From: Parvularcula bermudensis HTCC2503 | GTDB taxonomy: Bacteria; Pseudomonadota; Alphaproteobacteria; Caulobacterales; Parvularculaceae | DNA length: 64,000 nucleotides | Assembly: GCF_000152825.2 (NCBI RefSeq) | Contig: NC_014414.1 | Span: 1,798,001 to 1,862,000, forward strand | Direction of reading: 5' to 3' | Shown: positions 6,604 to 46,452 of the stretch, piece by piece | How the letters are laid out: each line of letters begins with the position of its first letter | How positions within the stretch are numbered: position 1 is the first letter of the stretch | Program-made: the position numbers and the translations under genes | Notes under the pieces: generated by a model | The model's input: only the letters and a program-made list of their open reading frames with translations | Told to the model about the DNA's origin: nothing | The model's database searches: none

Positions 6604-7800
6604 ATGCCATGGACGGATAAGCCCGGTGGATCGGGCAGCGGGAGCGGAAACGGAAGCGGACCCTGGGGAAGGCCAGGGGGACAGAATGGCGGCGACGACC
6701 GTCGACCGGCGGGAGGACGGCAATCCCCCGATCTTGAGGAATTGCTCCGATCGGGACGAGAGCGTTTTCGTCGCGGCGGGGGCGGCGGCAGCGGCAGTGG
6801 CGGGGGCAGTGACTTTAAATTGCCGTCCGGCCCGACCCTTGGCATCGCCGCTGTGGCGATCGTCTTGCTCTGGCTCCTCAGCGGACTTTACTCCCTGCCG
6901 CCGGGGGCGCGGGGCGTGGTCACGACCTTTGGCAATTATTCGGCCCTCACTGGACCGGGCCTGAATTGGCGACTGCCATGGCCGTTTCAGGATCATGCGC
7001 GCGTTCAGGTGGATCAGGACCGGTCGGTGACCATTGGTCGAGGGCGCCAAACCTCGATGGTGACGTCCGACCTCAATATCGTCGACGTTCAGATGACCGT
7101 CGACTATCAAATCTCCCCCGATGTCGGGCTGGCCGAGGGCGAGCTGCCCAATGCGGCAAAGTATATTTTCAATATCGAGAATCCTGACGGCCTGGTCCGA
7201 GCCGTGTCTGAATCCGCGCTGCGGCAAGTGGTCGGTGAAAGCGATTTCAGTCAGGTCATTGCCGAGAACCGGGCGTCGGTCAGCTTGCGGACCCAGGAAA
7301 TCATCCAGGAGATTCTCGATAGCTATAGCAGCGGGATTGAGATCATCCGGGTCAATTTCGGTCAGGCAGATCCCCCCGAGGATGTCATTCCCGCCCAGCG
7401 TGACGTTATCGACGCCCGGTCCGGGGCGGAACAATTGGTCAATGAGGCCAACCGCTACCGAAATAACCGCGTGCCTCGGGCTCGTGGTGAGGCACGGGAG
7501 ATCGAACTCGCCGCCGAAGCCTATGGCCAGCGGGTCGTGCGTGAGGCGCGCGGCGCGGCAAGCCGCTTCAACGATATCTATGCCGAGTATGTCCAAGCCC
7601 CCGATGTGACGCGGGAGCGGATGTATCTGGAAACCATGGAAGGGGTCCTTGGGACCATGAACAAGGTGGTGATCGACGACAATGCCGGTGGGGCGCTGCC
7701 CTATCTCAACCTCAATGAATTGGTGCGCGAAGGTCAGCGATCCCGCAGCGGGTCCACCCCGCCGGCCACCAACCAGGACACGACCGGAGGGCAACGCTAA
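6604..7800 (+). CDS. hflK: HflK, FtsH-modulating membrane protein
   Basis: Partner of HflC in the large inner-membrane SPFH assembly that surrounds and restrains the FtsH protease. The 398 residues begin with MPWTDKPGG and a Gly-rich N-terminus, have one membrane segment (about 78-98, IAAVAIVLLWLLSGLYSL), then the band-7/SPFH domain (GVVTTFGNYS, TSDLNIVDVQMTVDYQI), a helical stretch (EANRYRNNRVPRARGEAREI) and a polar tail. The stop overlaps the hflC start by one base (TAATG), indicating translational coupling. Confidence 0.94.
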   Translation: MPWTDKPGGSGSGSGNGSGPWGRPGGQNGGDDRRPAGGRQSPDLEELLRSGRERFRRGGGGGSGSGGGSDFKLPSGPTLGIAAVAIVLLWLLSGLYSLPPGARGVVTTFGNYSALTGPGLNWRLPWPFQDHARVQVDQDRSVTIGRGRQTSMVTSDLNIVDVQMTVDYQISPDVGLAEGELPNAAKYIFNIENPDGLVRAVSESALRQVVGESDFSQVIAENRASVSLRTQEIIQEILDSYSSGIEIIRVNFGQADPPEDVIPAQRDVIDARSGAEQLVNEANRYRNNRVPRARGEAREIELAAEAYGQRVVREARGAASRFNDIYAEYVQAPDVTRERMYLETMEGVLGTMNKVVIDDNAGGALPYLNLNELVREGQRSRSGSTPPATNQDTTGGQR

Positions 7801-44400: not shown

Positions 44401-45582
44401 ATGCAATTTGTAGGCGTGAAAGACAATGGCGAGGCGGTCACCTATATTGATCGCAAGCGCTTGGGCTGGCTGAATGTATTTATTGTCCCCGCGGTGGGGC
44501 TTGTCCCCCTCACAATCTTTGGGTTCATCGATCACAATCCGTTGTGGCTATTGCTACCGACGCTCATCGTTTTCGGTCTTCTCCCTCTCCTCGATGCCCT
44601 CGTGGGGAACGACAGCCACAATCCGCCCGAAGAGGTCGTTCCCGCCATGGCGAAGGACCGCTATTACGATTATGTCCTTTACGCGACGGTCCCGGCCTAT
44701 TTTGCTGCCTTGGTGATGGAAATGTGGGTCCTTGCGACCTTCGATATCCCCTGGTGGGCTGTCATTGCCCTGTTGTGGGGTATGGGAATCGTTTTGGGGA
44801 ATACGACGACCATTGGCCATGAACTCGGTCACCGTACAGACAAGCTCAATCGATTTTGGGCCAAGATGGCGCTCTCTGTGTCCGGATACGGACACTTTAC
44901 CGGAGAACATAATCGGCATCACCATACCTGGGTGTCGACGCCTGAGGATCCGGCGTCCGCCAAGCTGGGGGAGTCGGTCTATCGATTTGCATGTCGCGAA
45001 TTGCCCGGCGCTTTAATCGGGGGGTTAAAACAGGAAAAGCGTCGTCTCGCCGCGAAGGGCCTGCCCTTTTTCCATTGGCGGAATGATGTGTTGCAGGTCT
45101 ACGCTGTGACGATCCTGGTCGGTGCCCTTTTGATCGCGTGGCTTGGGTGGATTGTTCTGCCTTTTCTCATTATCCAACATTTCTTGAGCTGGTATGCGCT
45201 GACCCAGGTGAACTATCTGGAGCATTACGGCCTCCTGCGGGAGAAGCGGGAAAATGGGCGGTATGAGCCGTGCCAGCCGTGGCATTCCTGGAACTCAAAT
45301 CACCTGGTGTCGAACGTCATCCTGAACCATCTCCAGCGCCATTCCGATCACCACGCCCATCCGGCGAGGCCATATCAAGCCTTGCGGGATTTCGATAATG
45401 TCCCGAGTTTGCCGACCGGCTATCCTGGTGCGCTCTTTCTCGTGGCCTTTCCGCCGCTGTGGTTTCGTATCATGGATCCCAAAGTCATGGCTTGGGCGGG
45501 GAATGATCCGCGGAAAGTCCATCTGAGCGAGGCGCGCGCGCGGGCCTATGGGGTGGAGGCGCCGCAACGCGTCCTGACCTGA
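44401..45582 (+). CDS. alkB: Alkane 1-monooxygenase AlkB
   Basis: Membrane-bound di-iron hydroxylase that turns medium-chain alkanes into 1-alkanols. The 393 residues have about six membrane segments and the diagnostic His boxes HELGH, EHNRHHH, NYLEHYGLLR and HSDHHAHP. Its electrons come from rubredoxin and a reductase; neither is encoded nearby. It is controlled presumably by the divergent TetR-type gene. The C-terminal residues after the last membrane segment (AWAGNDPRKVHLSEARARAYG) are soluble. The tandem array of tRNA remnants follows. Confidence 0.95.
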   Translation: MQFVGVKDNGEAVTYIDRKRLGWLNVFIVPAVGLVPLTIFGFIDHNPLWLLLPTLIVFGLLPLLDALVGNDSHNPPEEVVPAMAKDRYYDYVLYATVPAYFAALVMEMWVLATFDIPWWAVIALLWGMGIVLGNTTTIGHELGHRTDKLNRFWAKMALSVSGYGHFTGEHNRHHHTWVSTPEDPASAKLGESVYRFACRELPGALIGGLKQEKRRLAAKGLPFFHWRNDVLQVYAVTILVGALLIAWLGWIVLPFLIIQHFLSWYALTQVNYLEHYGLLREKRENGRYEPCQPWHSWNSNHLVSNVILNHLQRHSDHHAHPARPYQALRDFDNVPSLPTGYPGALFLVAFPPLWFRIMDPKVMAWAGNDPRKVHLSEARARAYGVEAPQRVLT

Positions 45583-45623
45583 CGGGGCGTGCGCTCTATG
45601 GGGGCCTTGATCACCGACGCGTG

Positions 45624-46080
45624 TTGGGCGGTCAGGCCCCATAATCGGAGGCGCCGCGCGCCCGTGAGATCCAAAATGGCGTGAGCTGGGGAGAGGGGGT
45701 GAGCTCTGATCCCCAAAGCCGCGACGGCGGCTCGGGCGGTCAGCCCGCCCCATCGGAGGCGCCGCGCGCCCGTGAGATCAACAATGGCGGGAGCTGGGGA
45801 GAGGGGGTGAGCTCTGATCCCCAAAGCCGCGACGGCGGCTCGGGCGGTCAGCCCGCCCCATCGGAGGCGCCGCGCGCCGTGAGATCAACAATGGCGGAGA
45901 GTGAGTGACGAAGTTCGAACTCGGAGCCATGCGCTCAAGTAGGCGAAGCCGGTAGCGCAAGATGGAAACTGGCGGACGGAGAGGGAGTAAGTTCGAACTC
46001 CAGTACCCAAGGACGCGACCGCGTCCCGGCCGGTCAGGCCGCCCCCGCGGAGCGCCTTCGGCGCGTGAGCGAAAAAGTGC
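45624..46080 (-). repeat. Tandem array of tRNA-Ser 3'-end remnants (rtT-like)
   Basis: Units start at 45677, 45785, 45892 and 45970 (lengths 108, 107, 78 and 111 bp), preceded by a partial unit from about 45624. On the plus strand each begins TGGCG, the complement of the tRNA CGCCA end, followed by a degenerate acceptor/T-arm: GTTCGAACT in units 3 and 4, GAGCTCTGATCCCC in units 1 and 2. GC-rich stem sequence then leads to the next unit. Units 1 and 2 differ by one substitution and one deletion. The last unit abuts the tRNA-Ser gene, so the array is its 3' trailer. Confidence 0.75.
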
Positions 46081-46168
46081 TGGCGGGGAAGGAGGGATTC
46101 GAACCCCCGGGACCGTGAAGCCCAACGGTTTTCAAGACCGCCGCATTCGACCACTCTGCCACTTCCCC
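46081..46168 (-). tRNA. tRNA-Ser (UGA)
   Basis: 88 bases including an encoded CCA end (46083-46081). The acceptor GGGGAAG pairs with CTTCCCC. The anticodon loop CTTGAAA gives anticodon TGA (46132-46134 complement), and a long variable arm follows (GGGCTTCACGGTCCC), as expected for serine. The T-arm is GGGGGTTCGAATCCCTC. Confidence 0.95.
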
Positions 46169-46452
46169 AATATAGTCTCCCTCTATGGAGTCGCTCGCTC
46201 TTCGGAACAAGGGGGCGGCGCTCTCTGGTTCATTTGTCGATGCCGTCTGACCAGTCGACCTCGGTCACTGCCGTGCGAACCAGAGCAAGACTTAGGTGTT
46301 TTTGCGAGCGGGGCACGCCCATCACTCAAAGCGGTTGCCTATCTCGCCGGATAAAGCGCCTTTCCTTCTCAGAAACGCGCCCTTCAGCGTAGGCATGCAG
46401 GTCTATGGTGAGGCAACGGTTTCCTGCGGTGAAGAATCCCCGAGGCCGCTGC
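46169..46452. other. Spacer between tRNA-Ser and photolyase gene
   Basis: 284 bases. The promoter of the leftward tRNA gene should lie here; no strong -35/-10 pair was recognised. No credible ORF. Confidence 0.4.

What the first reader, a model, noticed from the sequence alone, without database searches (positions are those of the whole stretch)
45624..46168. rtT-like tandem array of tRNA-Ser 3' ends downstream of tRNA-Ser(UGA)
Four units (78-111 bp) and a partial one follow the tRNA on its own strand. Each ends in CGCCA with a decayed acceptor/T-arm; units nearest the tRNA keep GTTCGAA. The only precedent I know is the 178-bp rtT repeats of E. coli tyrT, which also each carry a tRNA 3' end. 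The array could be a processed trailer RNA, a decoy for tRNA-processing enzymes, or the scar of repeated integration at the tRNA.
Basis: seen in the sequence. Interest (0 to 1): 0.75.

Follow-up and report, generated by a model that had tools for sequence, protein, structure and literature searches.

The report
Hairpin repeats stacked behind tRNA genes
Behind the serine tRNA gene of this marine bacterium sits a stack of small hairpin-forming DNA repeats separated by decaying copies of the tRNA's own end; the same repeats sit behind 12 other tRNA genes of the genome and behind tRNA genes in unrelated alphaproteobacteria, which points to an undescribed family of short repeats that collect at the ends of tRNA genes.

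Summary
The array is real: four units (111, 78, 107, 108 bp) and a partial fifth follow tRNA-Ser(UGA), each full unit ending in GCCA. Only units 1 and 2 carry a significant tRNA-Ser 3' end (P=0.002); in units 3 and 4 similarity is at chance. The array is not unique. Its bodies belong to two hairpin families: A (about 70 nt, three covarying hairpins) and B (about 40 nt). In this genome (probably Parvularcula bermudensis) A and B lie behind 13 of 41 tRNA genes, including all ten class II tRNAs; 12 of 13 A hits and 18 of 18 B hits are tRNA-adjacent. In other Parvularcula they also occur elsewhere, partly just after stop codons. A is found in 27 of 385 sampled alphaproteobacteria, repeatedly at the tRNA CCA end. 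A's pairing shows no preference for G-U over A-C (24:33; tRNA stems 45:0), so the hairpins look kept as DNA rather than sense-strand RNA. tRNA-end tails match the isotype of their locus and decay outward. Best reading: REP/MITE-like hairpin cassettes accumulate next to the CCA end and spread among tRNA genes of one isotype through tRNA-end homology. The rtT analogy holds for layout only. The mobilising enzyme is unknown.

The parts
46081..46168 (-). tRNA-Ser(UGA) with encoded CCA; anchor of the array
   Evidence: ARAGORN, RF00005 60.1 bits
45970..46080 (-). Unit 1 (111 bp): A body 46007-46076 (CGCTCACGCGCC variant) plus tRNA-Ser-like tail about 45970-46001
   Evidence: R1 88.7 bits; tail P=0.002, best Ser GGA; body identical to the second unit at Ser(GGA) and 96% to the first at Ser(GCT)
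45892..45969 (-). Unit 2 (78 bp): B body 45926-45966 plus tRNA-Ser-like tail about 45892-45923
   Evidence: R2 40.1 bits; tail P=0.002, best Ser CGA
45785..45891 (-). Unit 3 (107 bp): A body 45821-45890; tail keeps only the CCGCCA end
   Evidence: R1 89.5 bits; tail P=0.60; body 99% identical to the Ser(CGA) unit
45677..45784 (-). Unit 4 (108 bp): A body 45713-45783; tandem duplicate of unit 3
   Evidence: R1 82.7 bits; TRF period 108; tail P=0.51
45606..45676 (-). Partial unit 5: decayed A body without a tail
   Evidence: R1 33.6 bits, 45606-45675

Best explanation
The array is a stack of short, non-coding hairpin cassettes of two families (A, three hairpins; B, one hairpin) that behave like REP/MITE-type repeats and come to rest directly after the CCA end of tRNA genes in sense orientation. 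Shown: two structured families; strict adjacency to tRNA 3' ends in this genome; the same families behind tRNAs in other genera and orders; tRNA-3'-end tails between bodies; tails matched to the isotype of the locus; outward decay; bodies nearly identical between loci of one isotype; B nested inside A. Inferred: a new cassette arrives beside the intact tRNA end and a copy of that end is left on its far side, so older cassettes and tails are pushed outward and decay; tRNA-like ends then act as short homology that lets cassettes move or convert between tRNA genes of one isotype; local slippage duplicates units (units 3 and 4). The agent that moves the bodies is not identified; no RAYT (PF01797) was found in this genome. 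The hairpins are kept in a form that suits DNA (or both strands), so single-stranded-DNA hairpin mobility is the likeliest route. A sense-strand trailer RNA is not the conserved product.
For: Adjacency: in this genome 12 of 13 R1 hits lie within 500 nt downstream of a tRNA on its strand, and by position all 18 R2 hits are tRNA-adjacent (one search read); such windows are under 1% of the genome. 13/41 tRNAs bear units, all 10 class II against 3/31 class I (Fisher p=2.6e-7). Structure: R1 seed alignment, 95% of cells paired, 111 double-change cells vs 31 in shuffles and 3-13 when slid; B weaker but above shuffles. DNA-level pairing: G-U 24 vs A-C 33 in 70 distinct copies; control tRNA acceptor stems 45 vs 0. 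Tails: best-matching tRNA has the isotype of the locus in 13/19, permutation p<1e-4. Outward decay: 10 of 10 untied within-array comparisons agree, p=0.004. Spread within isotype: Ser, Leu, Arg and Ala bodies have their nearest relative behind another tRNA of the same isotype in the same genome. B nested in A. Outside Parvularcula: A directly behind tRNA-Leu, Val and Arg in Rhodobacteraceae, Neomegalonema and other MAGs, with tandem copies, and behind Thr, Leu, Ser, Arg tRNAs in the class survey.
Against: No recombinase or transposase is tied to the units; units of about 110 bp are too short for an ordinary double-stranded circle. In congeners about half (P. mediterranea) or a third (P. lutaonensis) of A copies are not tRNA-adjacent. 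Sense orientation at tRNA and some CDS ends (13 vs 4 copies, p=0.05) could also reflect selection for a 3'-end function. Several tails fit no tRNA better than chance. A decayed A remains at orthologous tRNAs in different species, so much of the pattern may be old inheritance with loss elsewhere rather than targeted arrival. No filled/empty pair with sharp breakpoints was found.
Confidence: 0.55

Rival explanations
1. rtT-like processed trailer or decoy RNA: the array is transcribed with the tRNA and its units work as RNAs, with tRNA-end tails binding tRNA-processing enzymes.
For: Units lie on the tRNA strand directly after CCA; conserved three-hairpin fold; no classical intrinsic terminator found behind any tRNA of the genome by a strict scan.
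Against: Paired positions tolerate A-C as often as G-U, which an RNA under selection should not; tails decay to chance in units 3 and 4; copies occur away from tRNAs and in inverted pairs in congeners; no Rfam match.
Confidence: 0.12
2. Scar of repeated integrase-driven integration: each unit is the deleted remnant of an island integrated at the tRNA 3' end, which leaves a displaced tRNA end behind.
For: tRNA ends are integrase targets in this genome (integrases near Asp GTC, Gly GCC and Thr TGT tRNAs) and in relatives (DUF6538 protein after Ser CGA); a tRNA-Arg 3' half next to an A copy (L152); outward decay.
Against: Independent deletions would not leave the same A or B body with precise ends at many tRNAs, behind a tmRNA and after stop codons; no integrase next to any array tRNA here; no plasmid or phage match.
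Confidence: 0.13
3. Gene 3'-end element (terminator or processing site): A and B are kept after gene ends because they define 3' ends.
For: Sense orientation after tRNA CCA, after tmRNA (L150) and within 30 nt after stop codons in 13 of 40 non-tRNA copies vs 4 on the other side; convergent gene pairs are the commonest setting.
Against: Only 2-3 T after the last hairpin; no G-U preference; patchy presence (27 of 385 alphaproteobacteria; G004 of the same genus has no A hit).
Confidence: 0.15
4. Plain tandem duplication by replication slippage at hairpins, each time copying the tRNA end plus its trailer.
For: Units 3 and 4 are clear duplicates; partial last unit without a tail.
Against: Bodies of unrelated families A and B alternate and units are shared between loci in different order, which local slippage cannot give alone.
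Confidence: 0.05

Closest known systems
rtT repeats / RtT RNA (RF00391) of E. coli tyrT
   Same: Tandem repeats behind a tRNA gene on its strand, each carrying a tRNA 3' end (the tRNA end in rtT is from general knowledge; period 178 bp seen).
   Different: No sequence or covariance relation either way; here two body families at 13 tRNAs of one genome and in many alphaproteobacteria.
REP/BIME and MITE-like intergenic palindromic repeats
   Same: Short, dispersed, hairpin-forming, intergenic, often at gene 3' ends, sometimes as inverted pairs; nested insertion; DNA-level pairing.
   Different: No RAYT (PF01797) gene in this genome; strong preference for the tRNA CCA end; tRNA-end tails between units.
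Integrative elements at tRNA 3' ends (displaced attR copies)
   Same: Displaced tRNA 3' ends stacked outward from an intact tRNA.
   Different: Units of about 40-110 bp with no gene; same bodies at many tRNAs and at non-tRNA gene ends.

Membership tests
RtT RNA (RF00391) | Matches the RtT covariance model | tested here: not met
   No hit in window 45500-46300 at E<=10; the four E. coli copies score 133-138 bits
RtT RNA (RF00391) | Tandem repeats, each ending in a tRNA 3' end, behind a tRNA | tested here: met
   Layout met for units 1 and 2 with significance; units 3 and 4 keep only GCCA
REP elements | Short interspersed palindrome with conserved pairing, extragenic | tested here: met
   Three covarying hairpins; mostly intergenic copies
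REP elements | Cognate RAYT (Y1 transposase) in the genome | tested here: not met
   PF01797 absent from G000; found in 2 of 21 genomes searched
Integrase-type tRNA integration scar | Tyrosine recombinase gene or its remnant beside the array | tested here: not met
   No PF00589 hit of G000 lies in the window or next to an array tRNA
Integrase-type tRNA integration scar | Displaced tRNA 3' end copies that decay outward | tested here: met
Selected sense-strand structured RNA | G-U pairs clearly favoured over A-C | tested here: not met
   24 vs 33; control tRNA stems 45 vs 0
Selected sense-strand structured RNA | Detected transcript | not testable with these tools
   No expression data held

The most novel reading that the evidence does not exclude
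A and B are members of an undescribed, alphaproteobacteria-wide class of gene-less cassettes addressed to tRNA 3' ends: moved as folded single-stranded DNA by a host or unknown recombinase, inserted at the CCA end with a copy of the tRNA end left behind, and stacked in order of age like integron cassettes.
Probability: 0.25. Interest if true: 0.85.

Novelty: new variant of a known kind. Interest (0 to 1): 0.6.

Why it matters
tRNA 3' ends are the best known landing sites for bacterial mobile DNA, but the known lodgers are large and carry an integrase. Here gene-less hairpins of 40-70 nt use the same address across several orders, carry tRNA-end tails and follow tRNA isotype. If confirmed, this gives a datable record of events at tRNA genes and a tractable case for asking what moves very short hairpin repeats, and whether stacked hairpins affect tRNA 3' maturation. 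It also gives the isolated rtT repeats of E. coli a possible general setting.

Tried and rejected
Small ORFs over the array (window 45295-45753 -, 45681-45908 +, 45885-46154 -): no Pfam match, treated as chance frames. Rfam at gathering and permissive thresholds: only tRNA; the sub-threshold sX4 and plastid-model hits overlap the tRNA and are not taken as evidence. RAYT-driven REP: no PF01797 in this genome. Terminator scan: no strict intrinsic terminator behind array or non-array tRNAs, so uninformative. Plasmids and phages: no match. Paper searches on Parvularcula with tRNA repeats, rtT, intergenic repeats and tRNA trailers found nothing on point; the library is incomplete. Clean filled/empty sites: the apparently empty P. 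lutaonensis tRNA-Leu loci turned out to hold decayed A copies.

Full report
What is there. Behind tRNA-Ser(UGA) (46081-46168, minus strand) follow units of 111, 78, 107 and 108 bp and a partial one. TRF and the repeat finder confirm the tandem repeat.

Two hairpin families. Bodies of units 1, 3, 4 and 5 are family A; unit 2 is family B. Thirty-five A copies from this and related genomes align as three hairpins joined by conserved CTCAC and CTCCGATGGGG; 95% of cells pair, 111 cells change on both sides versus 31 in shuffles and 3-13 when partners are slid. B is one hairpin with the core ACCGCTTCGCTRCTTGAG and a covarying stem. Models R1 and R2 find in the window only the array with confidence.

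Place in this genome. Of 41 tRNA genes, 13 carry units: all four Ser, all five Leu, the Tyr, and Ala(GGC), Arg(ACG), Thr(GGT). All class II tRNAs are included (Fisher p=2.6e-7). Twelve of 13 A hits lie within 500 nt downstream of a tRNA on its strand; the thirteenth is weak. All 18 B hits are tRNA-adjacent (one search read).

Tails. Between bodies lie stretches that end in CCA or a relative of it. Scored against all 41 tRNA 3' ends, 14 of 19 tails reach P<=0.028 by shuffling, one more 0.036; the tails of window units 3 and 4, Thr and Tyr do not. The best tRNA has the isotype of the locus in 13 of 19 (permutation p<1e-4) but is the local isoacceptor in only 3 of 8 Ser and 2 of 8 Leu tails, so units are shared among isoacceptors. 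Scores fall with distance from the tRNA in all 10 untied comparisons (p=0.004); this uses four arrays and a hand-defined tail, so it is modest evidence.

Movement. A bodies behind different Ser tRNAs are up to 100% identical, and each closest relative is mostly behind a tRNA of the same isotype in the same genome: Ser with Ser, Leu with Leu, Arg with Arg in P. maris, Ala with Ala in P. lutaonensis. Unit order differs between loci (A then B at Ser UGA, B then A at Ser GGA). B sits inside A in P. mediterranea and P. maris, so B at least behaves as an insertion.

Beyond this genome. In P. mediterranea 13 of 25 and in P. lutaonensis 9 of 14 A hits are downstream of a tRNA on its strand, often starting right after CCA; the same-genus genome G004 has no A hit. 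One copy follows tmRNA, one a tRNA-Arg 3' half, several a stop codon; among 40 non-tRNA copies, 13 have a sense gene ending within 30 nt before them against 4 with an antisense gene ending within 30 nt after them (p=0.05). An exact core pattern in GTDB genomes hits Rhodobacteraceae, Neomegalonema, Paracoccaceae, Acuticoccus and an unplaced MAG, mostly directly behind tRNAs and in tandem. In a class survey 27 of 385 genomes have A (a lower bound, since few candidates per genome were scored); among the 28 loci read, intact tRNAs lie directly upstream in seven and tRNA 3' pieces in a few more.

DNA or RNA. In 70 distinct A copies, non-Watson-Crick cells are G-U 24 and A-C 33, for tRNA-adjacent copies 17 and 20. 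The same count on 110 tRNA acceptor stems gives 45 and 0. A sense-strand RNA under selection should favour G-U. The alignment was fitted to the model, which should affect both mismatch types alike. I take this as evidence that pairing is kept at the DNA level or on both strands.

Known systems. E. coli rtT shares the layout (period 178 bp; four RF00391 hits) but no sequence or model match. REP elements share size, pairing and setting, but the RAYT enzyme is missing here. Integrase scars share displaced tRNA ends, but no integrase gene lies beside the arrays and identical bodies at many places do not fit random deletion.

Verdict. The likeliest account is accumulation of REP/MITE-like hairpin cassettes at the CCA end with spread inside an isotype through tRNA-end homology (0.55). 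The step that moves the bodies is inferred, not shown.

Noticed in passing
L019/L276 and L260 (G031), L011 (G010), L022 (G013): Another genus has an unrelated body with the same layout behind tRNA-Ser: units end in a near-perfect tRNA-Ser 3' end, and the body holds a reverse complement of the local T-arm (CGAACCCAC or CGAACCCTC) that changes with the tRNA.
   Followed up: partly
L265, L269 (P. mediterranea), L287, L296 (P. maris): B elements inserted inside A elements, between or within the hairpins.
   Followed up: partly
L150:929-1364: A copy directly downstream of the alphaproteobacterial tmRNA in P. lutaonensis.
   Followed up: no
L152:1086-1230: A copy preceded by a tRNA-Arg(CCG) 3' part without its 5' part, like an old integration end.
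   Followed up: no
L340 (G278), L342 (G366): Long tandem A arrays of about 80-88 bp period away from tRNAs in two alphaproteobacterial genomes.
   Followed up: no
G000:C1 near 49017, 677447, 2308694: Integrase domains close to tRNA-Asp(GTC), Gly(GCC) and Thr(TGT), none of which carries the hairpin units.
   Followed up: partly
window 6867-6931 (+): Weak R1 match (17.5 bits, E=0.02) close to a short G-rich tandem repeat at 6773-6811; probably chance.
   Followed up: no
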